DNA of 32,683 bases from Syntrophus aciditrophicus (GCA_020726025.1 DYTH01000010.1:1-32683), one strand, 5' to 3'; counted from the stretch's first letter, positions 3,740-28,418 are shown. The notes: a model not told the origin generated them from the sequence alone. Translations and numbers: made by a program.

Positions 3740-3818
3740 AATGTCTTGAGAGCGGTTATCCCGTCCGCAAAAAGTGAACAGGGGAGAGCTTTGAATTTCT
3801 CCTGAAATCAGCCAAATC

Positions 3819-3895
3819 GTCATACCGTCGAAAGACGGTATCCAGTCTTTTCAGCATCTTCTGGATTCCGGGTCAAGCCCGGAATGACAAAAAGG
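3819..3895. repeat. Chimeric, solo copy of the hairpin core shared by families A and B
   Basis: Left half CATACCGTCGAAAGACGGTATCCAG matches family B. Right half CTGGATTCCGGGTCAAGCCCGGAATGAC resembles family A. Two 8-bp perfect stems; no clear TIRs. Confidence 0.75.
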
Positions 3896-3972
3896 GTAGA
3901 TTTTCAAAGGTCTCCAGGGAGGGCCGCGATTTCAGGGAAAAAACGGGTTCGGCGCCGTGATATCGGATTGTT

Positions 3973-5232
3973 ATGCCTGCATTTTCAGGTGAAAAAACAG
4001 GGCTCTGTCCCTCATTAAAGGTGCTTCATATAATTACCCGTTTCGACAAGGGCGGGTCGGCGGAAAATACGTTTCTGACGGCGGCGCATCGTGACGGGGG
4101 CCGCTACGGGGTGTGTCTTGTTACGGGCCAACAAGATGAAAACACGAGTAATAACGAGAAGTCGGCAATAGAGAAAAACATCGCCGCACTCCGGGAAAAG
4201 GGAGTTCCGTTGATTGTTTGCCCCCATCTGGTGCGGGAGCTGCGTCCGATTGCGGATTTGACTGCATTTTTTTCTCTGTGCGGGATTATCCGCAGGGAAA
4301 GACCCGATATCGTCCATACCCACACATCGAAGGCGGGGATGCTGGGCCGCTGGGCGGCGAGGCTCTGCCGGGTTCCGGTTGTCGTCCATACACCGCATGG
4401 GCATGTTTTTCAAGGCTATTTCGGCCCGGTGAAAACGCGGCTGTTCGTCATTTTGGAGCGATGGACGGCGAAGATTACCGACGTACTGGTCATGCTGACG
4501 CCGCAGGAGATGAAGGAACACCTGGAGCTGCGGATCGCCCCGCCGGAAAAGTTCACCGTCATCCACAGCGGCGTCGATATGGAGGAATGCGACCCGGAGA
4601 GATTTCCCCGCAGCGCGGGACGCAAGGTGCTGCGGATAGATGAAAATAAGACAGTTATCGGGACGGTGGGGCGGCTGACCGCGATCAAGGGACAGGACGT
4701 CCTGATCCGGGCCGCGGCCGAACTGGCGAAGACGCGGGCGGATGTCCTTCTGGTCATTCTTGGCGCGGGTGAATTGCAGGGCGAGTTGGAAAAACAGGTT
4801 CAGTATTCGGGAATATCTGAAATCGTCAGGTTTCTGGGATGGAGGCCCGATGTTTGCCGGGTCATGTCGGCCTTTGATATATTCTGTCTCCCCTCGTTGA
4901 ATGAAGGCATGGGGAAGGTCGTGGTCGAGGCGATGGCCATGGGACTGCCGGTCGTGGCAAGCGATGTCGGAGGGATAAAGAATCTCGTCGGCGACGGTGA
5001 AAACGGTCTGCTGGTTCCTCCCGGCAATGCCTCCGCTCTGGCCGCGGCGCTCGATTCCATGTGCAATAATCCACAGAAACGTCGTCTTATGGGCGCATCC
5101 GGCCGACAAAAGGCCCCCTCTTACAGCGCTGCGGCAATGGTGGCGAAAATCGAAAAACTGTATCAATCTCAGGCCGGAAAGATTCGCCCCTTTCCAGCGC
5201 CCCGGCAACAACGAAAGGAGAAGATACTGTGA
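3973..5232 (+). CDS. Glycosyltransferase family 4 protein
   Basis: KVLHIITRFDKGGSAENTF, VHTHTSKAGMLGRWAA, VIHSGVD, and LPSLNEGMGKVVVEAMAMGLPVVASDVGG (GT-B motifs). Confidence 0.9.
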   Translation: MPAFSGEKTGLCPSLKVLHIITRFDKGGSAENTFLTAAHRDGGRYGVCLVTGQQDENTSNNEKSAIEKNIAALREKGVPLIVCPHLVRELRPIADLTAFFSLCGIIRRERPDIVHTHTSKAGMLGRWAARLCRVPVVVHTPHGHVFQGYFGPVKTRLFVILERWTAKITDVLVMLTPQEMKEHLELRIAPPEKFTVIHSGVDMEECDPERFPRSAGRKVLRIDENKTVIGTVGRLTAIKGQDVLIRAAAELAKTRADVLLVILGAGELQGELEKQVQYSGISEIVRFLGWRPDVCRVMSAFDIFCLPSLNEGMGKVVVEAMAMGLPVVASDVGGIKNLVGDGENGLLVPPGNASALAAALDSMCNNPQKRRLMGASGRQKAPSYSAAAMVAKIEKLYQSQAGKIRPFPAPRQQRKEKIL

Positions 5233-5347
5233 AGATGCGGGGTGCATGCCTTCGACGGGATGGAGCGAGAGGAACGAGGTATTGATTTCAGGCAGTTGTC
5301 CTGAGAGGCACGATGTGATAAAGAGTGCGCCATGCGGATTTCAACGA

Positions 5348-5481
5348 TGATGAACTCGTCAAAAGTCGATTTTGCCCCTTTTTGTCATTCCATGCTTGAC
5401 ACGGAATCCAGAGAATTTAGGTGCTTCTGGATTCCGGCTTTCGCCGGAATGACGGTTTTTGGACTTTTGACGAGACCATCA
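5348..5481 (+). repeat. Complete 134-bp family-A MITE-like element
   Basis: TIRs TGATGAACTCGTCAAAAGTC / GACTTTTGACGAGACCATCA (2 mismatches in 20). Flanked by ACGA at 5344-5347 and 5482-5485, within a longer TCAACGATGA match on both sides. Confidence 0.9.
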
Positions 5482-5484
5482 ACG

Positions 5485-7044
5485 ATGAATATAAAACACG
5501 GGGGGACCTTTAAAAAATACGCCCCGCCGTCATTCCGGGGAAAGCCGGAATCAGGAAGATTGCAAAATAGCAGCGTTTCACCCGCAGGGTTCAGGGCGGT
5601 ATTTTTCAACGCGCTCCTTGCGTTGCTGGCTCCGTTGGTGATTTTTACCTCCCCGGCGCCCTGCCGGGCGGCCTCTTCCGGCTATGAGCACGTGTCGGCG
5701 GTGATCGATGTGCGCACGACGTTCAGCGACGGCGCCTACGATCCTGAAACGCTGGTCGGGATGGCGCGAAAGCGCGGCATAGGGGTTTTGTGCCTGAATG
5801 ACCACGATACGATGGAGATGGAGTACGGGATTCCTCCCTTCCGGAATATCCTCAGAAAACGGGTTGAACTCGGCTCGCTCAAGAAATCGGGCGCCGAAAA
5901 ATATCTTGCGTCTGTCAGGGAAGCCCGCAAAAACTACCCGGACATGATCGTTATCCCCGGTGCGGAAAGCGCCCCCTTCTATTACTGGTCGGGAAATCCG
6001 CTTGCCGGAAATCTGACCGCCAATGATCATGAACGGCGTATCCTGACCATTGGTCTTGAAAAGGCGGAGGATTACCGGACGCTTCAGGCGTTGCACATCG
6101 CAAGCGGCGTTTCCGGGCTGATGACCTGGCCGGCGACCGTTGCGGCCGTCCTGCTCATTTTTTCGCTGTTTCTTCTGCCAGGCAGGGGCAGGCCGCGCTG
6201 GGCAGGGGCCGTTATCGCGGCGGGGAGTCTTCTGTTTATCCTCAATGCGTTTTTCGCATCCGCGTCGCTTTTCGATCCCTACCACGGCGCGCAGGGGGCT
6301 AAACCCTATCAGCGGTTCATTGACGAGATGAATAAAGCAGGGATGCTGACCTTCTGGAATTACCCGGAGACCCGATCCGGGGTCAGAAAAATGGGTCCGA
6401 TCCGGGTGAGCACCCCTCCCTACCCGCAGATGCTGCTGGAGACGACCAACTACACGGGCTTTGCGGCCCTTTACGGGGAAAACATCACCGTGACGGAACC
6501 AGGCGGACTCTGGGACAAGGCGCTTCAGGAGTACTGCATGGGATACCGGCGGCGTCCGCCATGGGGAATCGCCACCGCCGACTATCACGAAGAGGGGGAA
6601 TCCGGTCAGAAACTGGGCGATTTTCAGACGGTGCTGCTTGTGTCCGAACGATCGCCGCAGGGGGTTCTGGACGCCCTGGGCAATGGACGGATGTATGCGC
6701 GCCAGGGGGAGTTCCCCCGTATGCCGCGCCTGACGGAATTCACCATTGCCGCGCTGGAACAGGATAACGCCCGGAAGGCCGTTTCAGGCGAGACGCTGTT
6801 TTTAAGGGGCGCTCCCCGGATAAAAATCTCGGTCGCCGGTTTTCCACCGGAACAGACGGCGCAGCTCAAGGTGCGGCTCATCCGCTCAGGCGAACTGGTG
6901 CAGATTTTTTCCGGGTCCATGCCGCTTACGATCGATTATGTTGACCATTTCGAGGCGTCGGGGAAAAAGGTTTATTACCGCGTTGATGTCAGGGGGTACG
7001 GAACAATCGTTTCCAATCCGATATTCGTGGAGTTTGCCCAATGA
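5485..7044 (+). CDS. PHP-domain-like membrane protein
   Basis: FSDGAYDPETLVGMARKRGIGVLCLNDHDT resembles a PHP domain. Signal-like hydrophobic N-terminus and an internal hydrophobic pair. The ORF is open from 5332 through the family-A element; the true start is uncertain. Confidence 0.75.
   Translation: MNIKHGGTFKKYAPPSFRGKPESGRLQNSSVSPAGFRAVFFNALLALLAPLVIFTSPAPCRAASSGYEHVSAVIDVRTTFSDGAYDPETLVGMARKRGIGVLCLNDHDTMEMEYGIPPFRNILRKRVELGSLKKSGAEKYLASVREARKNYPDMIVIPGAESAPFYYWSGNPLAGNLTANDHERRILTIGLEKAEDYRTLQALHIASGVSGLMTWPATVAAVLLIFSLFLLPGRGRPRWAGAVIAAGSLLFILNAFFASASLFDPYHGAQGAKPYQRFIDEMNKAGMLTFWNYPETRSGVRKMGPIRVSTPPYPQMLLETTNYTGFAALYGENITVTEPGGLWDKALQEYCMGYRRRPPWGIATADYHEEGESGQKLGDFQTVLLVSERSPQGVLDALGNGRMYARQGEFPRMPRLTEFTIAALEQDNARKAVSGETLFLRGAPRIKISVAGFPPEQTAQLKVRLIRSGELVQIFSGSMPLTIDYVDHFEASGKKVYYRVDVRGYGTIVSNPIFVEFAQ
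5527..5555. repeat. Solo hairpin module related to the family-A core
   Basis: CCGTCATTCCGGGGAAAGCCGGAATCAGG closely matches the reverse complement of the family-A right hairpin (CCGTCATTCCGGCGAAAGCCGGAATCCAG). Confidence 0.7.
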
Positions 7045-7724
7045 TTGTGGCCGTTCATCAGCCCCAGTACCTGCCCTGGCTGGGTTACTTTGACAAGATC
7101 GCCTCAGCGGATGTTTTTGTCCTGCTCGACACGGTCCAGTACAAGAAAAACGAGTGGCAGAACCGAAACCGGATTAAAGGGCCGAGCGGATGGCAGTGGC
7201 TGACCGTCCCGGTAACATACCGCTTTGGTCAGATGATTGATGATGTTATAATAAATAACCGGGAACACTGGCAAAGACGACAGAGTCAGGCGATCCTTTC
7301 CAACTACGGCAAGGCCCCCTTCCGTGATGATCTGATGCATACGATGGACGGGATATTCAGCCGTCCCTGGGAGCATCTTTCCCATCTGAATATCTTTACA
7401 GTAAAAATGTTATCAAAAATATTGGGTATTTCTACGCCGGTTTATGTTGCCTCGGAGCTTCCCCCTTTTCCCGATCGTCCGGATGAGCGGTTGATTGCCA
7501 TTGCCGGATATTTTGGCGCGGAGACCTATCTGGCCGGGAGCGGCGGGCGCGACTATATGAATCTTGAAAAGTTTGAACGGGCCGGCATAGAGGTGCGTTT
7601 CCAGGATTACCGCCACCCCGTTTACCGGCAGTTGTTTGCGGGATTTGAACCTTTTTTGTCGGTTGTTGATCTGATTTTAAACCACGGCAGCGAGAGTCTG
7701 AAAATTTTGCGAGGTGAAAAATGA
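7041..7724 (+). CDS. WbqC family protein
   Basis: MIVAVHQPQYLPWLGYFDKIASADVFVLLDTVQYKKNEWQNRNRIKGPSGWQWLTVPV is a typical WbqC N-terminus. ATGA overlap with the previous CDS. Confidence 0.93.
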   Translation: MIVAVHQPQYLPWLGYFDKIASADVFVLLDTVQYKKNEWQNRNRIKGPSGWQWLTVPVTYRFGQMIDDVIINNREHWQRRQSQAILSNYGKAPFRDDLMHTMDGIFSRPWEHLSHLNIFTVKMLSKILGISTPVYVASELPPFPDRPDERLIAIAGYFGAETYLAGSGGRDYMNLEKFERAGIEVRFQDYRHPVYRQLFAGFEPFLSVVDLILNHGSESLKILRGEK

Positions 7725-8338
7725 ACATACTGGCCGTAGGCGCCCATCCTGACGATATAGAGGCCGGCTGCGCCGGCACGCTTGCCAAATATGCCCGGGC
7801 AGGGCATGACATCTTCCTGATGGTCATGACGGAGGGAGACAGAGGGGGAAAGGCAGAAACGAGACGCGCCGAGCAGCAGGCCGCGGCCTCGATCATTGGG
7901 GTGCGGGAGATTATCTGGGGAGGTTACCGGGATACCCGGCTTACCCCCGGCATTAACCGGATGATCCAGACGATCGAAGCCGGGATCAGCAAGATTGCGC
8001 CGGATTTCATCTTTGTCCATTACGGGGACGACACCCATCAGGATCACCGTTCCCTCGCGAGGGCAACGATTTCCGCCACCAGGTACGTAAAGAACGTCCT
8101 TTTCTACGAAGGGCCGACCACGCAGAACTTTTCCCCGACCGTCTTTGTCGATATCTTCGAAACCTTTGACGTGAAGTTAAAAATGCTCATCGCCCACTCT
8201 TCTCAAGTGCAGAAAACAAATATCGAGCATGTAACCATTGCCGACATGGTCCACTCGACGGCCGTTTTTCGCGGCATACAGGGGCGGGTGCGGCTGGCCG
8301 AGGGGTTTGTCCCGCTGCGGTTGTTTATCAATATATGA
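7721..8338 (+). CDS. PIG-L family N-acetylsugar deacetylase
   Basis: AHPDDIEAGCAGTLAKYARAGHDI and HYGDDTHQDHRS motifs. ATGA overlap with the WbqC gene. Confidence 0.93.
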   Translation: MNILAVGAHPDDIEAGCAGTLAKYARAGHDIFLMVMTEGDRGGKAETRRAEQQAAASIIGVREIIWGGYRDTRLTPGINRMIQTIEAGISKIAPDFIFVHYGDDTHQDHRSLARATISATRYVKNVLFYEGPTTQNFSPTVFVDIFETFDVKLKMLIAHSSQVQKTNIEHVTIADMVHSTAVFRGIQGRVRLAEGFVPLRLFINI

Positions 8339-9435
8339 AAACTGTTTCCCATTCACGCCCGTCGATCGACGAAAATGAAATCGCTGCGGTTTCCGCTGTT
8401 TTGCGCTCCGGACAGATAGCCCAGGGGGTGCAGGTGGCGGCCTTCGAGAGGGCGCTGGCGGGACTTGTCGGCGTGCGTGGAGGCGTTGCGGTCAGTTCCG
8501 GGGTTGCGGCGCTCCATCTGAGCCTCCTCGCCCTTGGCGTGCAGGAAGGCGACGAGGTTGTGATGCCGGCTTTTGTCTGCACGGCGCTTCTGCATGCCGT
8601 TCGCTTTGTCCGCGCCGTGCCGGTTTTTGCCGATATCAGCCGCGAGACCTTCACGATCGATTACCGTGATGTAAAGAGGCGCCTGACGAAAAAAACAAGG
8701 GCAATGATCGTTCCGCACATGTTTGGACTTCCCGCCGATATGCGCGAGCTTGTCGCCTTTGGCGTGCCGGTGATCGAGGATTGCGCGCAGGCGCTGGGGA
8801 GCGCCTATGAAGGGAAACAGGCAGGCAGTCTCGGGGCGCTTTCCGTGTTTTCATTTTACGCGACCAAGGTGATCTGTACCGGCGAGGGGGGCATGGTCGC
8901 AAGTAACGACAGAGAATTACTGTCCAGAATTGAAGACTTGCGCGATTATGATGAAAAGGAGGACACAGGGCTGCACTTCAACTGCAAGCTGACGGAGATG
9001 CAGGCGGCGATGGGGCTTGTCCAGTTGAAAAAGCTGCCCGAATTTATCGCCCGCCGCAGGGAAATAGCGGGAAAATATGAGGACGCCCTTCAAAAATATC
9101 AGGTTATACTTCCCTCTTGTCCAGAGAATCGCGAGCATATCTATTTTCGCTATCCGATCAGGACAAAGAGCGCGCGAAAGCTGATTGAAGCCGGTCTGAC
9201 CGGTCGTATCGCCTATCGGCGGCCTGTTTTCAAACCCCTCCACCAGTATACGGCCCTCCACCAGCATACTGCCCTCCACCAGCATACTGGTGGTTACTCG
9301 CTGCCCGAAACAGACGCGGCGTTTGAAGAAACGGTTTCGATTCCCCTCTACCCGGCGCTCGCCAACGGGGAAGTTGAACAAGTCTTGCAGGACCTGACGT
9401 CGGCGCTGGAAGTGCAACGGGGAATCATTTTATGA
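8335..9435 (+). CDS. DegT/DnrJ/EryC1/StrS family PLP-dependent aminotransferase
   Basis: PVIEDCAQALGSAYEGKQAGSLGALSVFSFYATKVICTGEGGMV contains the PLP-Lys region. ATGA overlap with the previous gene. Confidence 0.93.
   Translation: MKTVSHSRPSIDENEIAAVSAVLRSGQIAQGVQVAAFERALAGLVGVRGGVAVSSGVAALHLSLLALGVQEGDEVVMPAFVCTALLHAVRFVRAVPVFADISRETFTIDYRDVKRRLTKKTRAMIVPHMFGLPADMRELVAFGVPVIEDCAQALGSAYEGKQAGSLGALSVFSFYATKVICTGEGGMVASNDRELLSRIEDLRDYDEKEDTGLHFNCKLTEMQAAMGLVQLKKLPEFIARRREIAGKYEDALQKYQVILPSCPENREHIYFRYPIRTKSARKLIEAGLTGRIAYRRPVFKPLHQYTALHQHTALHQHTGGYSLPETDAAFEETVSIPLYPALANGEVEQVLQDLTSALEVQRGIIL
9238..9291 (+). repeat. In-frame 18-bp tandem repeat, 3 units, inside the aminotransferase CDS
   Basis: CTCCACCAGTATACGGCC / CTCCACCAGCATACTGCC / CTCCACCAGCATACTGGT, encoding LHQYTA-LHQHTA-LHQHTG. 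Confidence 0.95.
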
Positions 9436-10592
9436 GTGCATTCAATAACAAAGAATTCCAGCATAATCGTTTTCTGCGTGTGTATCTGACGGCGGCGGCG
9501 ATCGTTTTTATTGCGTTATGGATTTTTCCGGTTCGTCGCCTGTTTTTTGAAAGCGGCGTCCGCTGGTTCTACATCCTGCTTTTTGCCTCCTCCTCGTCCG
9601 CCCTTTTAACGCCGCTTATGATTGCCATTGCCAAAAGGGCGGGCATTGTTGACAATCCCGGCGGTCGAAAGATACACGCCACGGCAACCCCTCTTCTGGG
9701 CGGCGTGGCGATCGTTGTCTCGTTCATTGCGGCCCTGATGTCGAACATGATCCTTGACCGCGCTGAAATAGCGATTATGGCATGCGGTTTTGTCGTCGCC
9801 TTGATAAGTCTCGCGGACGACTGGAAAAATATCCGCGCCTCGTACAAGCTGGCCGTACAGGTTATTGCTGCCGTAGTTCTTGTCATCTTCGGTGTTTCGC
9901 TGGATATTTTCCCGATTCATACGCTCTGGGGCTCTTTTCTGAACGGCGCCGTGTCCGTGCTGTGGGTAGTCGGGTTGACCAACGCGATGAATTTCATTGA
10001 CGGGATGGACGGTCTGGCGACGGGCGTATGCATGGTGATTGCGGGATTTCTGGCGATCGCGGCCTACCAGACCAGTCAGCCGTTCATGGGATGGATCGCG
10101 ATGGGGATGCTGGGGAGCTGCCTCGGTTTTCTGCCGTTCAATTTTGGTTTGAAAAGACCCGCCACCATCTTTCTGGGAGACGCGGGCAGCGCCTTCATGG
10201 GATTTGTGCTTGCAGCGCTGGCTATCAAGGCCGACTGGGCGGACAACAACCCGATCGTTTCTTTCGTCACGCCGATTTTGATCTTCTGGGTTCTGATCTA
10301 CGACATGGCCTACATAACAGTGGAGCGAATCGTCACCGGAAAGGTCAAAAATTTCCGTGAATGGATAGACTACGTCGGCACCGACCACATACACCACAGA
10401 ATTTTCGCCATTTTGCAGGATAAACGCAGAACGGTATTTTTTATCCTCTTTTTGAGCGTTACCCTTGGCATAAACGCTCTCATCCTGAGGAACGCCCGCA
10501 CGATAGACGGCATCCTGACCGTGGTGCAGGCATTCTTCATCACCGTCATTGTCTCGATTCTTGAGTATTTCGGGAAAAAAACAAAAAAATGA
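9432..10592 (+). CDS. MraY/WecA-like undecaprenyl-phosphate sugar-1-phosphate transferase
   Basis: VDNPGGRKIHATATPLLGG, DDWKN, NAMNFIDGMDGLA, FLGDAGS and DHIHHR motifs; many hydrophobic segments. ATGA overlap with the aminotransferase gene. Confidence 0.93.
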   Translation: MSAFNNKEFQHNRFLRVYLTAAAIVFIALWIFPVRRLFFESGVRWFYILLFASSSSALLTPLMIAIAKRAGIVDNPGGRKIHATATPLLGGVAIVVSFIAALMSNMILDRAEIAIMACGFVVALISLADDWKNIRASYKLAVQVIAAVVLVIFGVSLDIFPIHTLWGSFLNGAVSVLWVVGLTNAMNFIDGMDGLATGVCMVIAGFLAIAAYQTSQPFMGWIAMGMLGSCLGFLPFNFGLKRPATIFLGDAGSAFMGFVLAALAIKADWADNNPIVSFVTPILIFWVLIYDMAYITVERIVTGKVKNFREWIDYVGTDHIHHRIFAILQDKRRTVFFILFLSVTLGINALILRNARTIDGILTVVQAFFITVIVSILEYFGKKTKK

Positions 10593-10599
10593 CGGTAAC

Positions 10600-10926
10600 T
10601 TACAACTTTTCCTCAACCGACCTGATTTTCCCCTCCAGCCTGTTTTTGGCCCCCGCCCGGTAGTCCATCTGGAGCGTCATGTAGATGCGCTCCGAATCGC
10701 CTTTGAGTTCCTGAAAGCATTTTTCGACCACCCCCATCACCTCTGCCCAGGCGCTGCCCTCGATGGCGGTGCTCATCGGCCCCAGCTTGTACGGAAGCCC
10801 GCTTTCCTGGATAATGCGAATGGATTTGGCGACATAGGGGCTGACGCTTGTTCCCTTGTCGGTTGGAAAAATAGAAAAGTGAATCAGAACGCTCATTTTG
10901 ACTCCCGGATTTGTTAAATGTGCCAC
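10600..10926 (-). CDS. MTH1187 / UPF0045-type thiamine-binding protein
   Basis: MSVLIHFSIFPTDKGTSVSPYVAKSIRIIQESGLPYKLGPMSTAIEG (probable start at the internal Met); family signature GPMSTAIEG. Confidence 0.85.
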   Translation of the reverse strand: MAHLTNPGVKMSVLIHFSIFPTDKGTSVSPYVAKSIRIIQESGLPYKLGPMSTAIEGSAWAEVMGVVEKCFQELKGDSERIYMTLQMDYRAGAKNRLEGKIRSVEEKL

Positions 10927-10950
10927 GCTGTTTTGTACGCCATCCTGTTT

Positions 10951-10985
10951 CCCCGCCCCCTGCGTGATGGGGTCAATGGGCGGGG
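10951..10985 (-). terminator. GC-rich hairpin downstream of the TlpA-like gene
   Basis: CCCCGCCC (10951-10958) pairs with GGGCGGGG (10978-10985), immediately 3' of the minus-strand gene ending at 11005. No clear U-run. Confidence 0.45.
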
Positions 10986-11004
10986 GGGATGTGCCGAGGG
11001 GTTG

Positions 11005-11517
11005 CTATGGCTTTTTTTTCAAAATCGCATTGAGGATCGGCTCAATCTCCTGACACTGATGGCAGAGAATGTAGCCCTTCTGGTCAACAAGCACCAGCGA
11101 AGGAACGCCCCTGATCTCGTAAATCCCGCTCACGATTCCTGTTTCGTCGAGCAGCACCCGGTAGGGAAGTCCATAGCGTGTGGAAAATTTGGACATTTTC
11201 ACCTGCGACTCCTGAACCCCGACATTGACGATTTCCAGCCCCCTCGCTGCGTATGCTGAGTAGAGTTGTTTGAAATAGGGGATTTCGCTTTTACAGGAAG
11301 AGCACCAGGTGGTGCTGAAGATGATCATGACCGGCTTCTTGCCTTTATAGTCGCTCAAACGAAACGTTTTTCCGTTTAAATCCTTCAGGATGAAATCAGG
11401 CGCCTTGACGGCGCTGATTGGAGTCTTGCTCGACAGAACGTCCGTCGCAAGCAGAAAAAGCGAGAGGATCAAAGCTATCGCGGCAAAGGCCGCCTTTTTG
11501 CGGTTCAACATAAACAT
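11005..11517 (-). CDS. TlpA-like thiol-disulfide oxidoreductase
   Basis: Signal-anchor N-terminus, DFILKDLNGKTFRLSDYKGKKPVMIIFSTTWCSSCKSEIP (CxxC), and GVPSLVLVDQKG. Confidence 0.9.
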   Translation of the reverse strand: MFMLNRKKAAFAAIALILSLFLLATDVLSSKTPISAVKAPDFILKDLNGKTFRLSDYKGKKPVMIIFSTTWCSSCKSEIPYFKQLYSAYAARGLEIVNVGVQESQVKMSKFSTRYGLPYRVLLDETGIVSGIYEIRGVPSLVLVDQKGYILCHQCQEIEPILNAILKKKP

Positions 11518-11538
11518 TTTTCTCCTTTTTACAAGTAT

Positions 11539-11659
11539 GAGCCAATTGCAAAACTAAACTAATCCGTCGCCCCGGCGAAAGCCGGGGCCCAGAAGATCTT
11601 GAAAATACTGGATACCGTCTTTCGACGGTATGACGCACAGGGACTTTTGCAATTGGCTC
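11539..11659 (-). repeat. Complete 121-bp family-B MITE-like element between ccdA and tlpA
   Basis: TIRs GAGCCAATTGCAAAA / TTTTGCAATTGGCTC. Flanking GTAT at 11535-11538 and 11660-11663. Confidence 0.9.
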
Positions 11660-11669
11660 GTATGTATCA

Positions 11670-12386
11670 TTAAAGCCAGAGCATACCGACATTTACCAGA
11701 AAATATTCGCCCGTGGCAAGCAGAATCCACCCGAAGGCCTTGCTGATCCGGACCATCCAGGCGCCTGACCTGGGGATCGCCGACAGCAGGCCCGCGAAGG
11801 TGCCGACCAGAATCAGCAGGGTACCCATGCCGAGCGCGAAGACGAACATCAAGCCGGCGGCGAGAGGTACATTCTGTCGGGTTGCCGCGTAGCCGAGAAC
11901 GACGGCCAGGGCCGGCGCCGTGCAGGGGCCCATGACCATTCCCGATGCCGCCCCCACTAAAAAACTGCCGACGATGTCCTTTGATTTCGATCCGCTTTGC
12001 TTTCTTGAGATGAAATCCGGCGTTCTGATCGAAAACGAAAAGACGCCGAGCATGGATAACCCCATGAGAATGCAGACATTGCCAATGACGAGGTATGTCC
12101 ATGGGTTTGTCTGAATCTGTCCGAACAGTTTGCCGGAAAGTGCGGCAATGGCGCCAAGCGCCGTGTAGGTGACGGCCATCCCGACTACGTAGATGATGGA
12201 CAGGACGAATCCCCGTGACTTTGACCCGGCCCCGCGGGCGCCGATGCAGGCAAGGGTGATCGGGACCACCGGGTATATGCAGGGGGTGAAGCTTACCAGC
12301 ACCCCGGCTAAGTAAACAGCCAGAAACGAGAGGCCAAGAGACCCCTGTAAATATCCCGCAAGACCGTTAATGAAATTTTCTACCAT
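11670..12386 (-). CDS. ccdA: CcdA-type cytochrome c biogenesis / thiol-disulfide transmembrane protein
   Basis: YLAGVLVSFTPCIYPVVPITLACIGA and GMVMGPCTAPALAVVLGYAA, with the paired proline-flanked Cys of the DsbD/CcdA family; about six hydrophobic segments. Confidence 0.9.
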   Translation of the reverse strand: MVENFINGLAGYLQGSLGLSFLAVYLAGVLVSFTPCIYPVVPITLACIGARGAGSKSRGFVLSIIYVVGMAVTYTALGAIAALSGKLFGQIQTNPWTYLVIGNVCILMGLSMLGVFSFSIRTPDFISRKQSGSKSKDIVGSFLVGAASGMVMGPCTAPALAVVLGYAATRQNVPLAAGLMFVFALGMGTLLILVGTFAGLLSAIPRSGAWMVRISKAFGWILLATGEYFLVNVGMLWL

Positions 12387-12512
12387 GGTTTCCTCTTTGC
12401 ACCCTCATCGGAATTCCGGCGCGCTTATCCCGCAGATGTCTGCATTGACCCGTTATGCTCGCCCACTCGGGCCTGTCCATTTTATAACACCGGCAAACGG
12501 CAGAATCATGTT

Positions 12513-12646
12513 TGATGGTCTCGTCAAAAGTCGATTTTGTCCCCTTTTGTCATTCCGTGCTTGACACGGAATCCAGTGAATTTAGTCACTTATGGATTCC
12601 GGCTTTCGCCGGAATGACGGTTTTTGGACTTTTGACGAGTTCATCA
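12513..12646 (+). repeat. Complete 134-bp family-A MITE-like element
   Basis: TIRs TGATGGTCTCGTCAAAAGTC / GACTTTTGACGAGTTCATCA. Flanking TGTT at 12509-12512 and 12647-12650. Confidence 0.92.
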
Positions 12647-12739
12647 TGTTTGTGTCACTCACAACGGCATAGCCAGTTGGCCGCTGATCCACCCGGTATT
12701 TCACGCGCTAAAGACGTAACGCTAACGTTTTCAATTAGT

Positions 12740-12946
12740 TTAGTGATGATGGGCGCGCAGCGCTACAAGGCAATCCACGGATTCACGCAGCTTTTGAGCG
12801 GCGCTTTTCAACGTGTCTGCGATGTCTTTTCCGTCTTCAAGGTCCTTGATTTTCTCCGCCCATGCCTCATAATCGGCGGCGTGTTCCTGCTCGTGTTCGA
12901 TCCAGTGTTCGATAAGATGCTGCACCTTCTCTAAATCATTCATCAT
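12740..12946 (-). CDS. Small His/Glu-rich hypothetical protein
   Basis: 68 aa, MMNDLEKVQHLIEHWIEHEQEHAADYEAWAEKIKDLEDGKDIADTLKSAAQKLRESVDCLVALRAHHH. The minus-strand upstream region contains GGATGAATGATG. Confidence 0.6.
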   Translation of the reverse strand: MMNDLEKVQHLIEHWIEHEQEHAADYEAWAEKIKDLEDGKDIADTLKSAAQKLRESVDCLVALRAHHH

Positions 12947-13042
12947 TCATCCTTTCCGTCTTTCAGGGAACTTATCTCGTTCACGCTGATTTGTCAAGGT
13001 TCCGCGCAAGACAAAAGCGTGCAATGCAGCGATATAAAAAAC

Positions 13043-13071
13043 TTGACAGAGGCACGGCCATTCAATATACG
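13043..13071 (+). promoter_or_regulatory. Sigma70-type promoter candidate upstream of the HAD/ECH fusion gene
   Basis: TTGACA (13043-13048), 17-bp spacer, TATACG (13066-13071). Confidence 0.5.
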
Positions 13072-13186
13072 CACCATCAGCCATTTTCACAAAACGTTCC
13101 ACGCCCCGCACAGACGACGCGAAGGGTCGGCATGGCCCCCGGCATCACAAAGTGTGAGGCCGCTATAAAATAACGGGAGGAATTTC

Positions 13187-15166: not shown

Positions 15167-15172
15167 CGGCGT

Positions 15173-15571
15173 ATGGAATCGGCCGGTGTTCTGATTTACG
15201 GATATCACAGCGAGGATGCCCGGCGCATCCGGAGCTTTCTGGAGGAAGTTTCCGGGGCGCCCGTTTTCGTAACGGGCGCCTCCGGTCAGAACGAAACACG
15301 GATCATCGATATTCTGCAGAACACAACCGAAAGCCGTTTTGCCGACGAAGAGCCCAGGATCATGATGCTCCTCGGTTTTTCCGAGGAGCAGATCAACGCC
15401 ATTCTTGGCGGTTTCTCCGTCGGTCTGCAAGGCATTGACCGCCCCATTTTTTGCATGATGACCGCAAACAATCAAAACTGGCCCCTCAAACAACTGCTTG
15501 AGCATCTTGAGGAGGAACGCCGGTACTGGGCCAAAAAGACCCCGCCCGAAAATTCAGAGGGAGATGAATAG
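15173..15571 (+). CDS. DUF3783-type hypothetical protein
   Basis: VLIYGYHSEDARRIRSFLEE, MMLLGFSEEQINAILGGF, and RPIFCMMTANNQNWPLKQLLEHLEEER; starts 4 nt after the preceding stop codon. Confidence 0.7.
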   Translation: MESAGVLIYGYHSEDARRIRSFLEEVSGAPVFVTGASGQNETRIIDILQNTTESRFADEEPRIMMLLGFSEEQINAILGGFSVGLQGIDRPIFCMMTANNQNWPLKQLLEHLEEERRYWAKKTPPENSEGDE

Positions 15572-16321: not shown

Positions 16322-16346
16322 AAAAAGTAAAACGGAACATCATGCG

Positions 16347-16379
16347 TTTACGGCCCCGGCATGAAGTCGGGGCCGTAAA
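16347..16379. terminator. Perfect 12-bp hairpin between convergent genes
   Basis: TTTACGGCCCCG (16347-16358) pairs with CGGGGCCGTAAA (16368-16379), between genes ending at 16321 (+) and 16395 (-). Confidence 0.65.
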
Positions 16380-16394
16380 TCAATCAACTTTACA

Positions 16395-16616
16395 TCACTC
16401 TACTTTGGCCGCCTCTTTGTCCAGCGCCTCGGCCAGCGCATCATAGCCTTTATTTCCGAATTCGGTCACCTGCCAGCGAATGAGCTGCGCATAGGACAAT
16501 CCCTTCGCCTTCAGCCAGTTCTTGTGAACGCTGTTCGTCTGGCCGATGAAGTGCCGCGCCAGATCCAGCGTGTTGGGTGAAATCTTGCGACAACATGGAC
16601 AACGATACTTTGCCAT
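16395..16616 (-). CDS. Small zinc-ribbon/zinc-finger-like protein
   Basis: 73 aa, MAKYRCPCCRKISPNTLDLARHFIGQTNSVHKNWLKAKG (CxxC plus downstream His residues). Confidence 0.6.
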   Translation of the reverse strand: MAKYRCPCCRKISPNTLDLARHFIGQTNSVHKNWLKAKGLSYAQLIRWQVTEFGNKGYDALAEALDKEAAKVE

Positions 16617-16692
16617 CGAAACCCTCCTTATCTCTATCTCTCCGTTATTCTTCCGGAAAATGCATATTTGCCAATCTTTGACCGCTCACCTG

Positions 16693-18975: not shown

Positions 18976-19490
18976 TTCGCCCCTCCCTGCTCTTCTTGCG
19001 TCTGCAGGCGTTTCGCCGCATCCTGGATGGCCTCGTTGATCATGTTGTAGCCGGTGCATCGACACAGATGCCCATCCATCGCCAACTGAATTTCCTCCCG
19101 GGCAGGGTCGGGATTTTCATCCAGCAGACCCTTGGCGGCCATCATCTGACCGGAGGTGCAGAACCCGCACTGGAAAGCCCAGTTGTCAAGAAAGGCCTCC
19201 TGAATGGGGTGCAACTGTGTGCCATTCGCCAGCCCTTCCACCGTCAGAATCTCTTTCCCGTTTGCCTGCAGGGCCAGGATGGAGCATGATTTGACGGCCT
19301 TTCCGTTAAGAAGAACCGTACAGGCGCAGCAGGAACCGCTGTCGCAGCTCCGTTTCGTGCCTTTAAGTCCCAACTCGTCCCTCAAGACCTGAACCAGAAC
19401 CGTTTTGGGCTCTATCCAGAGATCGTAAGTCTGACCATTGACGACAAATTTTAACTCCTTCTTCATAGACATCCCCCTTATCTTTATCAC
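18972..19490 (-). CDS. Xanthine dehydrogenase family, (2Fe-2S) small subunit
   Basis: GLKGTKRSCDSGSCCACTVLLNGKAVKSC and QCGFCTSGQMM ... HLCRCTGYNMI, two 2Fe-2S motifs. Start may be an internal Met at 19472 or 19466. Confidence 0.93.
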   Translation of the reverse strand: MIKIRGMSMKKELKFVVNGQTYDLWIEPKTVLVQVLRDELGLKGTKRSCDSGSCCACTVLLNGKAVKSCSILALQANGKEILTVEGLANGTQLHPIQEAFLDNWAFQCGFCTSGQMMAAKGLLDENPDPAREEIQLAMDGHLCRCTGYNMINEAIQDAAKRLQTQEEQGGAK

Positions 19491-19491
19491 A

Positions 19492-20379
19492 TCAAGCCAT
19501 TGCGGCTCTCTCGAAAGCCTCTTTTCCGACGCGCGTAACCAGGGTGCCCACCAGCTCGCGTTTGTACTGCTCTGATATTTCAGCGTCGGATGTTGGACTG
19601 GCCTCTTCCGAGGCCATGCGACCCGCCTCCACCAGAAGATCGTCGGTGATGACCTTTCCCCTGAGGAGATATTCCGCCTTTTTGGCCCGCATCGGGGCCG
19701 GCGCGACAGAACCCATGGCGATGCGAATATCGGCGCAGGTCTTTTTGTCCGCGTCGAGGGTCATGGAAACCGCGGCGGAGGCAATGGCATAATCTCCCTG
19801 CAACTGGGAGAATTTGGTAAATTTGGCCCCGGTGCGGGGCGGCGGCGCCGGAATCTGGATTTCGGTCAGCAGTTCGTCATGGCCAATATCCGTCTCAAAA
19901 TAGCCGGACGTAAAATCCTCGGCTTCCACGAGACGCTCTCCTTTGGCGCCGGCCAGCTTGTATTTTGCGTTCAGCACGAGCATCACCGGCGCCGGGTCCC
20001 CGGAGGGGTCTCCATGGGCGATGTTGCCGCCGATTGTCCCCCAGTTCCTGGTCTCCACAGAGGAGACGTTCTGTTCCATCTCGGCCAGAATACAGAACGC
20101 ATTTTGCATCAGGGGTGATTTCTCGATGGCCCGGTGGGTTGTCAGCGCCCCGATTTTCAACCCCTCTTTTTCATTCCCGGAAATGGAGTCGAGTTCTGAC
20201 AGCCCTTTAATGTCAATGACATATTGTGGCGTTATCAGACCCTGTTTCAGCAGAATGATGAGGGACTGCCCTCCCGCAATGATTTTGCACTCGTCCTCGC
20301 CGTACTGGGAAAGCAGCTTCAGGGCTTCTTCAAGGGAGCCGGGTGCAAAATACTCAAAGTTGTTCATAATGTTTTTCAT
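19492..20379 (-). CDS. Xanthine dehydrogenase family, FAD-binding medium subunit
   Basis: FEYFAPGSLEEALKLLSQYGEDECKIIAGGQSL and TIGGNIAHGDPSGDPAP FAD motifs. Confidence 0.93.
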   Translation of the reverse strand: MKNIMNNFEYFAPGSLEEALKLLSQYGEDECKIIAGGQSLIILLKQGLITPQYVIDIKGLSELDSISGNEKEGLKIGALTTHRAIEKSPLMQNAFCILAEMEQNVSSVETRNWGTIGGNIAHGDPSGDPAPVMLVLNAKYKLAGAKGERLVEAEDFTSGYFETDIGHDELLTEIQIPAPPPRTGAKFTKFSQLQGDYAIASAAVSMTLDADKKTCADIRIAMGSVAPAPMRAKKAEYLLRGKVITDDLLVEAGRMASEEASPTSDAEISEQYKRELVGTLVTRVGKEAFERAAMA

Positions 20380-20508
20380 TTCGGTCTTGTCCTCCTTCGC
20401 GCATTGTTGTTGCGATAAACCCTTTTATTCAGGCCTCTTCGTCAAAAATTCCCTTGTGCGCCGGTTGAAGCTGCCCGTCGGCAGAAAAAAACCCGGGCAG
20501 CGCGCACA

Positions 20509-20964
20509 TCAAACGACGGCGATCTGGAGCGCCTTTTGCAGGTTGGCGCCAAAGGCTTCGCTTTCGGTCTTCGCCTTTGCCCGCATGATGCGCTCGCCGA
20601 ATGTTGCCAGCTTGCCGACCAGATTGACATCGGTCACGTAGATGATTTCGACGCTGCCATCCGGGATTTCTCTGATGTTGACCTCAAGGGCCATCGAGAA
20701 TGTCCCCATTTTCCCCAGCGCCTCGCCGGCGCCGACCGCTTTGATATGCGTTGGGGGGTCCATTTCCGTAATCTTGACAATAAACTGCAATTTGACGGAG
20801 ATCGGACCGACCGACTGCTTCATCAGGCAATCGTATGTGGTTGCGTCTGTTGCCTCGATTTTTTGCGCCCCTGGAACGCAGGCGGCCAGTGTGCCTGGCC
20901 GAAGCAGAATATCCCAGATCTGCTGCGCGGTGCCTTTTGCCTGAAAAACCCCTTCAATCTTCAT
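20509..20964 (-). CDS. CoxG-like SRPBCC family protein
   Basis: MKIEGVFQAKGTAQQIWDILLRPGTLAACVPGAQKIE is the typical CoxG-like N-terminus. Confidence 0.85.
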   Translation of the reverse strand: MKIEGVFQAKGTAQQIWDILLRPGTLAACVPGAQKIEATDATTYDCLMKQSVGPISVKLQFIVKITEMDPPTHIKAVGAGEALGKMGTFSMALEVNIREIPDGSVEIIYVTDVNLVGKLATFGERIMRAKAKTESEAFGANLQKALQIAVV

Positions 20965-21236
20965 AGTTATCCCTCTTTCAGATTAGAAATTGAACGCGTC
21001 CTGATTGTCGTGCGGGTTAGAAGACCGGAAGCTGGAGAATAAAAGCAAGGGAAGCAAGGGCGCTCCGCAAAAAGCAATCTCCCCGTTTTTCGTGCCTGCT
21101 TAAGGCCGCCATTGCTGGCGGATATACCCTGCATGGTATTGGGTCAACACTGCCACGATACATGAAATTCGGTCGATAAACATACCCAAACACATTTGTC
21201 AATAAATAATAGCCCGCAAACATCCCCTTTTTGAGA

Positions 21237-21632
21237 TCAGGCGGGGACTATCTCCCTGATGTACCGGATGATGTCTTCCGTCGAGGAACCGGGAAGGAAG
21301 ATTTCCTTGATGCCCGCCTCCTTGAGACCGGGGATGTCGTCAACCGGGATGATTCCCCCTCCGAAAACGAGAATGTCCCCGGCGCCTTTTTCCCGGAGCA
21401 ACTGCACGATTTTCGGAAAGAGCCGGTTGTGCGCGCCGGACAGAATGGAGAGTCCAATGATATCGACCCCTTCCTGGATAGCCGCACTGACGATCTGTTC
21501 CGGCGTCTGCCGGATTCCCGTGTAAATAACCTCCATCCCCGCATCCCGCAGCGCCCGGGCGATGACCTTGGCCCCCCGGTCATGACCGTCCAGCCCTGGT
21601 TTGGCGATGAGAGCTCTTATTGTACGTGCCAT
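21237..21632 (-). CDS. Cobalamin-binding (small) subunit of methylmalonyl-CoA mutase
   Basis: [34 protein letters not shown] contains the DxHxxG B12 motif; [14 protein letters not shown] and VFGGGIIP. Confidence 0.92.
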
Positions 21633-21777
21633 AAATGTCCCCTTTCAAAAGTTGCAATCGTGATTCAGTTATACCGTAAGCCTTGATTGCCACGGCAATA
21701 GCATGTTGTCAAGCTGTCGATTCCTCTTGGTGCGCGGCTGCAATCAGCGACAATGTCTGCCGCAGGCCGATATCCGT

Positions 21778-23433
21778 TTATTGCTGCGTGTACTCTCCAA
21801 ACACCTCCCGTAGTGCGTCGGAAATTTCGCCGAGCGTGGCATAGGCCTTTACCGCATCGAGAATCGACGGCATTAAATTATCCGTTCCCTGCGCGGCCTT
21901 TTTCAGGGCGACCAGGGTTTCCATCACCCTGGCATCGTTTCTGTCCGCCTTTACCCTGGCCAGTTTCTGCTTCTGGTAGTCCTCCACTTCAGGTTTGATC
22001 CGCAGAACATCCTTCAGCGGCACATCGGCTGATTGAAATCGGTTGATTCCGACGATGATCTGTTTGTTGGATTCGATGTCCTTCTGGTACTGGTAGGCGC
22101 TGTCGGCGATCTCCTTTTGAATGTAACCGGCGGCGATGGCCTTGATGGCGCCGCCCATCTCGTCGATTTTATTGATATACTCTTCGGCTTTTTTCTCTAT
22201 TTCGTTGGTGAGGGCCTCGACGGCGTAAGAGCCGCCGAGCGGGTCGGTCAAGTCGGTGACGCCGCTTTCGTAGGCGATGATCTGCTGGGTGCGCAGGGCA
22301 ATCGTGACAGAATCCTGGTTAGGCAGCGCGTACGCCTCGTCGCGGGAATTGGTGTGCAGGGACTGCGTCCCGCCGAGCACGGCGGCCAGCGCCTGCAGCG
22401 CGACGCGAACGACGTTGTTTTCCGGTTGCTGCGCGGTGAGCGTGCAGCCGGCGGTCTGGGTGTGAAATCGCAGCATGTAGGAAGAATCCTTTTTGGCATG
22501 GAAGCGTTCCTTCATTATTTTTGCCCAGATACGGCGAGCGGCCCGGAACTTCGCGACCTCTTCGAGAAAATTGTTGTGAGAGCAGAAGAAAAAAGAGATG
22601 CGCGAGGCGATTGAATCGACATCGAGCCCTTTTTTGATGGCCGCTTCCAGATAGGCGATACCGTCGGCGAGCGTGAAGGCAACCTCCTGAACGGCCGTGC
22701 TGCCGGCTTCGCGCATGTGATAGCCGCTCACGCTGATCGAATTCCATTTGGGGACGAAATCCTTGCAGTAGGCAAAGATGTCGGTGACGATCCGCATCGA
22801 TTCCTGCGGCGGAAAAATGTAGGTTCCCCGCGCCGAATACTCCTTCAGGACGTCGTTCTGGATCGTCCCCTGCAACATGTCGCTTTTGACGCCCTGTTTT
22901 TCAGCCACGGCGATGTACATGGCCAGAAGGATCGCGGCGGTTGAGTTGATGGTCATGGAGGTTGAAACCTTATCCAGCGGGATGCTGTCGAAGAGGATCT
23001 CCATGTCTTTGAGCGAATCAATCGCTACGCCCACCTTGCCAACCTCCCCGTCGGAAAGGGGGTGGTCGGAGTCGTAGCCGATCTGCGTCGGCAAATCGAA
23101 GGCCACGCTGAGCCCGGTCTGCCCCTGCTGGAGGAGGTACCGGTAACGCTGATTGGTTTCCTCGGCGGTCGCGAATCCGGCGTACTGCCGCATGGTCCAG
23201 AAACGTCCCCGGTACATGGTCGGCTGGACCCCGCGGGTGAAAGGAAACTCGCCGGGAAGTCCAATATCCGGCATATAGCCGTCATCACCGGCGTCCATCG
23301 GGGTGAAGATATCCTTCAGCTCGATATGGGAGGTGGTTTCAAAGTACGGTTGACGTGCGGGCGATTTGGAAACGGACTTTTTCAGTGTCGTTTCCTGCCA
23401 GCGCCCCAGTTCCTCAGGTGTAAGATTCGGCAT
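21778..23433 (-). CDS. Methylmalonyl-CoA mutase family, catalytic large subunit
   Basis: [84 protein letters not shown]; no B12 domain in this chain. Confidence 0.92.
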
Positions 23434-23600
23434 GAGCGGCTCCTTTATTTGAGTTTTGAGCCAAATTCTTCAATGAACGTGGCCTGTTAACAAGTATCAT
23501 GAATGTACCGGAGAATTCCCCCGACCAAAATAAATCCCCGCCGGAAGTTACTGGCCCCATAACACATTTCAAAATAATTACAACCGGAAAATGGAAAGAC

Positions 23601-23639
23601 GAACCAATTGCAAACGTGCCTGTGCGTCATTCCGGCGAC
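23601..23639 (+). repeat. Decayed left-end fragment of a family-B element
   Basis: GAACCAATTGCAAACGTGCCTGTGCGTCATTCCGGCGAC versus the family-B end GAGCCAATTGCAAAAGTCCCTGTGCGTCATACCG. Confidence 0.7.
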
Positions 23640-23657
23640 TTTTTTCGGAGAATTTGA

Positions 23658-23686
23658 TTGACATGCAGACGGCCTTTTCCTATATA
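23658..23686 (+). promoter_or_regulatory. Sigma70-type promoter candidate for carB
   Basis: TTGACA (23658-23663), 17-bp spacer, TATATA (23681-23686). Confidence 0.6.
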
Positions 23687-23740
23687 CCACCCGCAAAGCG
23701 GAAATAACGAAAAGTACCCCGTCAACCAAGGAGAACGACC

Positions 23741-26944
<3,204 letters not shown>

Positions 26945-26950
26945 ATGATT

Positions 26951-26992
26951 TTCCCTGTTGCCTTACCCGTTGCGGGTGAGGCAACAGGGGAA
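26951..26992. terminator. Long hairpin downstream of carB
   Basis: CCCTGTTGCCTTACCC GTTGC GGGTGAGGCAACAGGG, nearly continuous stem; no obvious U-run. Confidence 0.6.
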
Positions 26993-27064
26993 ATGCAGAC
27001 GGGCGACGATTGCCCCGGCGCAAACAGACGGTTTCAAGGCTGAACCCGGAACATCAACTGGCTC

Positions 27065-28216
27065 TTATGGCTGGTGCAGGGATTTGATCCCGGCGTCAAA
27101 CGGCGGGTGGATGACGCCCTCTTCGGTGATGATCGCGGTGATCAGCTCGGCTGGGGTGACATCAAAGGCGGGGTTCCAGACAAAGACGCCTTCCGGGGCG
27201 GTCTGTGTTTTGCCGCAGTGGGTGACCTCGGCGTGGGGGCGTTCCTCGATGGGTATCCGGGCGCCGTCGGCAAGCGAGGCATCGATCGTCGAGAGGGGGG
27301 CGGCGATGAAAAGCGGAAGACCGTGGGCGCGGGCGAGGACGGCAAGCCCGTAAGTACCGATCTTGTTTGCCGTATCGCCGTTTGCGGCGATGCGGTCGGC
27401 GCCGACAACTACCAGATCAACCCGCTTTTCCTTCATCAGAAAGGCGGCCATGTTGTCGGTGATTAAGGTGCAGGGGATGCCCTCGCGGGTCAGCTCCCAG
27501 GCGGTGAGCCTCGCCCCCTGCAGCACGGGGCGCGTCTCGTCGGCGTAAACGTGGATATTCTTCCCCTGCCGCCATGCCGAGCGGACGACCCCGAGGGCCG
27601 TCCCGTAGCCGGCGGTGGCGAGCGCCCCGGCGTTGCAGTGGGTCAGTATCCGGGCGCCGTCGGGGATCAGCGCGGCGCCGTTTTCGCCGAGGCGGATGTT
27701 GATCGCGATGTCCTCCTCGCATATCCCGATTGCCTCGGCAATCAGGTCATTCTGGATCTTTGCGATATCCCGCGGGCTGCTGGACAAGGACGTTGCGTCG
27801 GCAGGATGGCCGATCTCACTTTCCGGCTTGCGGCCGGTTCCTGCCCGTTGGCTCAGCGATGCGGCGAAGCGGGCGCGCATCCGCTCGATCGCCCAGAAAA
27901 GATTCCGGGCGGTCGGACGGGACGCGGCGAACTGACGGCATATTTCGTCGAACTCCTGTTGAATCTTATCGTACGAGTCGCCGCAAAAAGAAAGCGTGCC
28001 CAGGGCAATCCCCATCGCCGCTGCGACGCCGATCGCCGGCGCGCCGCGTACGGTCAGATTTTTGATCGCCTCGACGACCTCGCGGTAATCGGTGCAGGTC
28101 AGACAGGATTCCTCGAGAGGCAGGGCCCGCTGGTCTATCAGGACAACGGCGTTGTCCTGCCAGACGATGGTGTTGATTTTGGTCTTTGCTTCAGGGGACG
28201 ACGCATTCGTGTGCAT
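27065..28216 (-). CDS. mtnA: S-methyl-5-thioribose-1-phosphate isomerase
   Basis: LTVRGAPAIGVAAAMGIALG, LTHCNAGALATAGYGTALGVVR, and DLVVVGADRIAANGDTANKIGTY. Confidence 0.95.
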   Translation of the reverse strand: MHTNASSPEAKTKINTIVWQDNAVVLIDQRALPLEESCLTCTDYREVVEAIKNLTVRGAPAIGVAAAMGIALGTLSFCGDSYDKIQQEFDEICRQFAASRPTARNLFWAIERMRARFAASLSQRAGTGRKPESEIGHPADATSLSSSPRDIAKIQNDLIAEAIGICEEDIAINIRLGENGAALIPDGARILTHCNAGALATAGYGTALGVVRSAWRQGKNIHVYADETRPVLQGARLTAWELTREGIPCTLITDNMAAFLMKEKRVDLVVVGADRIAANGDTANKIGTYGLAVLARAHGLPLFIAAPLSTIDASLADGARIPIEERPHAEVTHCGKTQTAPEGVFVWNPAFDVTPAELITAIITEEGVIHPPFDAGIKSLHQP

Positions 28217-28277
28217 GACGCTTGCCGCCTTCGTGAAAAGTCAGACATTCCGGTAGTCTTTATACCATTGAAATACT

Positions 28278-28418
28278 GAGCCAATTGCAAAAGTCCCTGT
28301 GCGTCATACCGTCGAAAGACGGTATCCAGTATTTTCAAGATATTCTGGACCCCGGCTTTATGAACATTAAGCTTCGCTTTCGCCGGGGTGACGGATAAGC
28401 TTATTTTGCAATTGGCTC
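28278..28418 (+). repeat. Complete 141-bp family-B MITE-like element with a loop insertion
   Basis: TIRs GAGCCAATTGCAAAA / TTTTGCAATTGGCTC. Flanking TACT at 28274-28277 and 28419-28422. Confidence 0.92.

What the first reader, a model, noticed from the sequence alone, without database searches (positions are those of the whole stretch)
3819..28418. Compensatory base changes across elements support conserved hairpins in the core
Written in one orientation, the first stem is ATTCCGTG/CACGGAAT in the 12.5-kb copy and ATACCGTC/GACGGTAT in both B copies and the 3.8-kb copy. The last stem is ATTCCGGC/GCCGGAAT (A), GCCCCGGC/GCCGGGGC (B, 11.5 kb), ACCCCGGC/GCCGGGGT (B, 28.3 kb) and ATTCCGGG/CCCGGAAT (3.8 kb). 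Each is an 8-bp perfect stem despite changed bases. A shorter CCAG...CTGG stem sits between them in most copies. In A the element could also fold as one long hairpin (GTCATTCCG with CGGAATGAC), but in B that long pairing is lost while local stems are kept. Inference: the local multi-hairpin form (with TIR pairing, a cloverleaf-like shape) is the selected one, for transposition as single-stranded DNA or as RNA.
Basis: partly seen in the sequence, partly recalled or inferred. Interest (0 to 1): 0.82.

Follow-up and report, generated by a model that had tools for sequence, protein, structure and literature searches.

The report
REP hairpin pairs inside transposon MITEs
The hairpins are real and their paired bases do change together, but they are a known kind of bacterial repeat (CGTC-type REP pairs) riding inside three kinds of miniature transposon, two of which can now be matched to the DNA transposases that probably move them.

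Summary
The stems are in the sequence as described, and paired bases covary well beyond chance. Among 41 distinct units, the covariation score is 0.506 against 0.189±0.019 in shuffles. Across a phylum, in a set chosen without regard to the four tested pairs, it is 0.334 against 0.104.

The core is a head-to-head pair of CGTC-tagged REPs (Di Nocera 2013).

The proposed route, transposition as ssDNA or RNA, is not. The pairs lie in three MITE shells with target duplications of 6 bp (A), 4 bp (B) and 5 bp (C, the 3.8-kb copy). Relatives hold full-length elements with matching ends and duplications and a DDE transposase: 1,924 bp/597 aa for A, 1,510 bp/366 aa for B. This gives a concrete vehicle for CGTC REPs, which were reported to lack a dedicated transposase. 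What keeps the stems perfect (selection on the hairpin, or template-switch homogenisation) remains open.

In passing: the 28.3-kb copy carries a 21-bp insert that recurs 133 times in this genome, follows (G)AA, and is read in frame as seven codons in genes of a relative.

The parts
12514..12645 (+). Element A (MITE shell A), 132 bp, TIR GATGGTCTCGTCAAAAGTC/GACTTTTGACGAGTTCATC; target duplication ATGTTT at 12508-12513 and 12646-12651
12548..12576 (+). REP unit, CGTC-2 type: TGTC ATTCCGTG CTTGA CACGGAAT CCAG
12592..12619 (-). REP unit, CGTC-1 type: CGTC ATTCCGGC GAAA GCCGGAAT CCAT
5349..5480 (+). Second A element, 132 bp; target duplication AACGAT at 5343-5348 and 5481-5486; first unit has one broken pair (ATTCCATG/CACGGAAT)
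1..52 (-). Part of a further A element, cut by the contig start
11539..11659 (+). Element B (MITE shell B), 121 bp, TIR GAGCCAATTGCAAAA; target duplication GTAT at 11535-11538 and 11660-11663
11565..11592 (+). REP unit, CGTC-1 type: CGTC GCCCCGGC GAAA GCCGGGGC CCAG
11608..11635 (-). REP unit, CGTC-1 type: CGTC ATACCGTC GAAA GACGGTAT CCAG
28278..28418 (-). Second B element, 141 bp; target duplication TACT at 28274-28277 and 28419-28422
28302..28329 (+). REP unit, CGTC-1 type: CGTC ATACCGTC GAAA GACGGTAT CCAG
28345..28393 (-). REP unit, CGTC-1 type with stem ACCCCGGC/GCCGGGGT, its loop interrupted by the 21-nt insert
28358..28378 (-). 21-bp dispersed insert AGCGAAGCTTAATGTTCATAA, directly after GAA
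3784..3914 (+). Element C (third MITE shell, the 3.8-kb copy), 131 bp, TIR GAGAGCTTTGAA/TTCAAAGGTCTC; target duplication CAGGG at 3779-3783 and 3915-3919
3818..3845 (+). REP unit, CGTC-1 type: CGTC ATACCGTC GAAA GACGGTAT CCAG
3861..3889 (-). REP unit, CGTC-2 type: TGTC ATTCCGGG CTTGA CCCGGAAT CCAG
32527..32679 (+). A shell carrying a different palindrome pair (CCCTCCCC...GGGGAGGG), 153 bp; left target duplication ATTATT, right flank cut by the contig end
5526..5552 (+). Single CGTC-1-like unit outside any recognised shell
23601..23638 (+). Remnant of one end of a B element

Best explanation
The core is a head-to-head pair of CGTC-tagged REP units (types CGTC-1 and CGTC-2) carried as non-coding cargo inside three unrelated MITE shells, A, B and C. 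Shown here: the unit stems covary; local pairing is kept while pairing between units is not; the shells have TIRs and fixed-length target duplications; full-length elements with matching ends and duplications and a DDE transposase exist in relatives for A and for B. Inferred: those DDE transposases move the MITEs in trans as double-stranded DNA by cut and paste, and the REP pair rides along without its fold being required for that step. Inferred with less certainty: stem perfection is kept at the level of the REP unit, because the tag strand is recognised as a folded hairpin by host or mobile-element factors, helped by template-switch correction of imperfect palindromes during replication.
For: Covariation: score 0.506 against 0.189±0.019 and at most 0.10 when slid, a phylum-wide set with four pairs left free, 0.334 against 0.104, 185 of 206 unit copies perfect, selected by tag, left arm, loop and tail only, 13 compensated doubles against 0.38. 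Local against long pairing: 984/992 against 702/992 in 62 HH dimers; 6 TT, 0 HT. Target duplications: A 6 bp, perfect in 56/71; B 4 bp, perfect in 21/29; no other length fits. C 5 bp. 12 A insertions split a recognisable 21-mer and duplicate its AAGCTT-type site. Partner of A: L340:1277-3200, TIR mismatches 0 and 2, duplication ATTGTT twice, 597-aa ORF with PF13751, PF01609 and PF05598 over cut-off. Partner of B: L295:6-1515, duplication TGTT twice, PF01609 and PF05598 over cut-off. Y1 transposase genes of the genus have other repeats at their ends. Alignment to the congener's syntenic stretch breaks off at the window's 3.8-, 5.3-, 11.5- and 12.5-kb elements.
Against: No transposition was observed. 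The window's own draft genome (92% complete) has no PF01609 match, so the partners come from relatives: A from the same genus, B from another genus of the family. No full-length partner was found for C. Within the recent A burst, single-copy mutations hit stems about as often as other positions (6 at 32 positions against 20 at 100), so current selection on each copy's fold is not visible. Why three unrelated shells carry the same cargo is not explained.
Confidence: 0.85

Rival explanations
1. The covariation does not need selection on a fold: replication template switching repeatedly copies one arm of the palindrome onto the other, so both arms change together.
For: The process is documented in microbes and can produce compensatory changes (PMC8794818). 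Broken pairs show no preference for G-T over A-C (8 against 6). Singletons are not clearly depleted in stems of the recent A burst, and a broken stem is shared by three copies.
Against: Tag, tail, the CC/GG pairs and the GAAA loop are nearly invariant in the family set, though tag, loop class and tail were partly fixed by the selection. Conservation of unpaired letters points to recognition of the unit as well.
Confidence: 0.4
2. The elements act as RNA: transcribed hairpins that stabilise or terminate mRNAs, with base pairing kept by selection on the RNA.
For: Strong RNA folding (z -5.6 to -8.8); GNRA-type loop GAAA on the tag strand; REPs are often thought to be transcribed (PMC3733652).
Against: No Rfam match at gathering thresholds; no excess of G-T wobble; the copies arise by DDE-type insertion, so structure need not be selected as RNA.
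Confidence: 0.2
3. The units are moved by a single-strand (Y1, RAYT-like) transposase that recognises the folded tag strand, as for GTAG REPs; the MITE shells are secondary.
For: Same general layout as GTAG REPs (tag, stem, loop, HH dimers); the same cargo sits in three unrelated shells and as single units, so the cargo seems able to enter shells.
Against: None of the Y1 genes examined in the window's genome, its congener and one other family member (G003) carries CGTC units; the three intact congener genes checked for repeats have other inverted repeats at their ends, two with GGGGTCAG. Di Nocera et al. found no CGTC association either. Whole elements show DDE-type duplications.
Confidence: 0.15
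4. The element is one single-stranded or RNA-mobile cloverleaf.
For: B and the 3.8-kb copy fold as a cloverleaf.
Against: TIRs with 4-, 5- and 6-bp duplications and DDE partners; A folds differently; tag-to-tag pairing is imperfect in most dimers.
Confidence: 0.03

Closest known systems
CGTC-tagged REPs, families CGTC-1 and CGTC-2 (Di Nocera et al. 2013, PMC3733652)
   Same: Tag CGTC/TGTC, 8-bp stem usually starting AT, 4- or 5-nt loop, CCA tail, HH dimers, heterodimers with a conserved spacer, no Y1 transposase at their ends.
   Different: Here the dimers sit in three TIR shells with target duplications, and DDE partner elements are found for two. The 2013 paper reported no dedicated transposase; it noted H. 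neapolitanus dimers inside a 41-bp palindrome, which may be a similar shell.
Bacterial MITEs (for example Nezha, NEMIS, QMITE2)
   Same: Short, non-coding, TIRs, target duplications, many copies, matching full-length IS. QMITE2 of Coxiella contains a GTAG REP (PMC5896051).
   Different: The interior is a CGTC REP pair, and one TIR shell (A) carries several unrelated palindrome pairs at nearly fixed lengths.
IS1182/IS5-like insertion sequences
   Same: Partners of A and B have DUF772 and DDE_Tnp_1 domains and best or near-best NCBIfam scores to IS1182 and IS5 models.
   Different: Scores are below the curated cut-offs (162.5 against 270 bits for A). A's 6-bp duplication differs from the 4 bp listed for an IS1182 element, ISPse1 (PMC3281130).
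GTAG REPs with RAYT transposases (REPINs)
   Same: Small hairpins, HH dimers, high copy number.
   Different: Different tag; no Y1 partner; here moved inside DDE-type shells.

Membership tests
CGTC REP superfamily | CGTC (or TGTC) tag, 8-9-bp stem, 4-5-nt loop, CCA tail | tested here: met
CGTC REP superfamily | HH dimers predominant, TT rare, HT negligible | tested here: met
   62 HH, 6 TT, 0 HT
CGTC REP superfamily | Not associated with Y1 transposase genes | tested here: met
MITE | Terminal inverted repeats at both ends | tested here: met
MITE | Fixed-length target-site duplication | tested here: met
   A 56/71 perfect at 6 bp, B 21/29 at 4 bp; C 5 bp, few copies
MITE | Full-length partner with the same ends and duplication length | tested here: met
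   A: L340; B: L295; none found for C
MITE | Mobilised in trans by that transposase | not testable with these tools
   Needs a transposition assay
IS1182 family (partner of A) | NCBIfam IS1182 equivalog cut-off | tested here: not met
   162.5 bits against 270
IS200/IS605 or RAYT-moved element | No target duplication; Y1 transposase linked to the repeat | tested here: not met
Known structured RNA (Rfam) | Match above the family gathering score | tested here: not met
   0 matches
Selected RNA structure | Covariation beyond phylogenetic expectation (R-scape) | tested here: inconclusive
   Shuffle, slide and spanning-tree controls are passed; R-scape was not available, and template switching gives the same signal

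The most novel reading that the evidence does not exclude
The 21-bp insert in the loop of the 28.3-kb copy (AGCGNAGCTTMATGTTCAYAA) is itself a mobile element, possibly among the smallest known. It enters directly after (G)AA in fixed orientation, can fold as a GNA-loop mini-hairpin with compensating stem bases, re-creates its own AA target so that tandem arrays grow, and is tolerated in genes because it adds seven codons without a frameshift.
Probability: 0.5. Interest if true: 0.8.

Novelty: new variant of a known kind. Interest (0 to 1): 0.6.

Why it matters
CGTC REPs occur in at least five phyla, and how they spread was left open. Here they ride inside MITE shells that match identified DDE elements, so the question becomes testable with two specific transposases. 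The case also warns that perfect covariation in a repeat need not mean an RNA or a ssDNA intermediate.

Tried and rejected
Rfam search of the window (nothing at gathering thresholds). Y1/RAYT transposases as partner (other end repeats). Helical phasing as the reason for the 132- and 153-bp lengths: for the CGTC-carrying A elements the 21-bp step is the insert itself. Length peaks near 110, 121, 132, 142, 153 and 174 bp remain suggestive of phasing, but the clusters share ancestry and a collapsed set gives only p about 0.014, so it is not claimed. An autonomous version of the 21-bp insert with split ends: none found in the stretches held. Plasmid and phage collections: no match to the heptad protein or to element A. 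PARCELs (25-residue coding palindromes, PMC2996958): different unit length. One search, an E. coli record, was not needed.

Full report
Observation. The unit pattern occurs 9 times in the window against 0.09 expected, and 106 times in the genome against none for the reversed pattern. The genome is a 2.16-Mb draft in 149 contigs.

What the core is. Each hairpin is a unit: tag CGTC or TGTC, 8-bp stem, loop GAAA (4 nt) or CTTGA (5 nt), tail CCAG/CCAT. This is the definition of CGTC REPs, types 1 and 2, in Di Nocera et al. 2013. Units come as head-to-head pairs: 62 HH, 6 TT, 0 HT in the stretches read. A and the 3.8-kb copy are CGTC-1/CGTC-2 heterodimers; B pairs two different CGTC-1 units.

Covariation. 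To limit circularity, units were selected by tag, left arm, loop and tail only, and the right arm was then scored: 185 of 206 copies are perfect, and 25 of 44 haplotypes. Six of eight pairs covary; the two CC/GG pairs hardly vary (and the left-arm CC was part of the selection). On 41 distinct CGTC-1 units the score is 0.506 against 0.189±0.019 in shuffles and at most 0.10 when slid. A search of 247 genomes with four pairs left free found the unit in 64 of them; the distinct sequences listed, with own-genome ones added, give 0.334 against 0.104. A minimum spanning tree has 13 compensated doubles against 0.38 expected. These controls are not R-scape; relatedness is only partly handled.

Which fold. 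Within units 984 of 992 pairs are Watson-Crick; the long pairing between units has 702 of 992. A folds as a long hairpin and B as a cloverleaf with RNA parameters, and the same with DNA parameters. So the local hairpins are the conserved feature. The cloverleaf's tag-to-tag arm is not supported: most dimers combine CGTC with TGTC.

The shells. A: 19-bp TIR GATGAACTCGTCAAAAGTC, 6-bp duplication, consensus AAGCTT, perfect in 56 of 71. B: TIR GAGCCAATTGCAAAA, 4-bp duplication, perfect in 21 of 29. C, the 3.8-kb copy: TIR GAGAGCTTTGAA, 131 bp, 5-bp duplication CAGGG. Twelve A copies split a recognisable 21-mer and duplicate its six-base site, which serves as a paralogous empty site. The A shell also carries other palindrome pairs, for example at 32527-32679, and other interiors in relatives.

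The partners. A PF01609 search of nine genomes returned a transposase in the congener G001 lying between A ends: L340:1277-3200, 1,924 bp, TIR with 0 and 2 mismatches, ATTGTT on both sides, 597-aa ORF with PF13751, PF01609 and PF05598. For B, L295:6-1515 in G004 is 1,510 bp with TGTT on both sides and a 366-aa ORF with PF05598 and PF01609. Both are IS1182/IS5-like but below the NCBIfam cut-offs. The window's own genome has no PF01609 match, although A is far more abundant there (146 TIR matches against 6 in G001); the partner may be lost or unassembled. The Y1 genes found carry none of these repeats, and those checked have other end repeats.

Mechanism. Shown: ends, duplications, partners, covariation. 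Inferred: movement in trans by DDE cut and paste. The REP fold is probably not required for that step, since three A copies share a broken stem. What keeps stems perfect over long times is open. Selection on a recognised hairpin fits the conserved tag, tail and loop. Template switching (PMC8794818) fits the lack of wobble preference (8 G-T against 6 A-C) and the singletons in stems, which are not clearly depleted. I lean slightly to recognition aided by template switching.

The 21-bp insert. In the 28.3-kb copy the last loop contains AGCGAAGCTTAATGTTCATAA. With one mismatch allowed, the genome has 133 copies and the congener 199; many in the congener ride in B elements. Distinct contexts number 62 and 80 in the stretches read; AA precedes nearly all, and G precedes AA in 79% and 64%. 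Element pairs with and without it show clean 21-bp steps: G005 elements of about 131 bp against G001 elements of 174 bp with two inserts. Its mini-stem uses G-C, A-T and, in G001, T-A pairs. In the congener it is read in frame as K[AT]K[LF]NVH heptads, often just after the start codon, in genes matching IspD, a sigma-54 regulator, OmpH and DUF1015. The predicted DNA hairpin of a single copy is weak by itself (-1.7 and -0.6 kcal/mol). No paper in the library held the heptad or the insert sequence. Whether it moves by itself is unknown.

Noticed in passing
window 28358-28378 (-); 133 places in G000, 199 in G001: 21-bp dispersed insert AGCGNAGCTTMATGTTCAYAA after (G)AA, fixed orientation, mini-stem with compensating bases, sometimes in tandem (L091:221-283, L229:18801-18884).
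   Followed up: partly
L252:13855-14610, L229:18796-19995, L253:8758-9330, L252:7426-8781 (congener G001): The 21-bp insert is read in frame as heptads such as KTKFNVH in genes matching IspD, a sigma-54 activator, OmpH and DUF1015, three of them directly after the start codon.
   Followed up: partly
window 32527-32679 and other A-shell copies: The A shell also carries an unrelated G/C-rich palindrome pair (CCCTCCCC...GGGGAGGG) at 153 bp, so one TIR family has several interiors.
   Followed up: partly
A, B and C elements in all loci: Element lengths cluster near 110, 121, 132, 142, 153 and 174 bp, roughly one helical turn apart; shared ancestry makes the statistics weak.
   Followed up: partly
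G000 against G001: A-type ends: 146 in the window's genome and 6 in its congener, suggesting a recent burst, with no PF01609 transposase detected in the window's draft genome.
   Followed up: no
L251:19451-19600 (G001) against window 12387-12764: The same intergenic gap holds a C-like element in the congener and an A element in the window.
   Followed up: no
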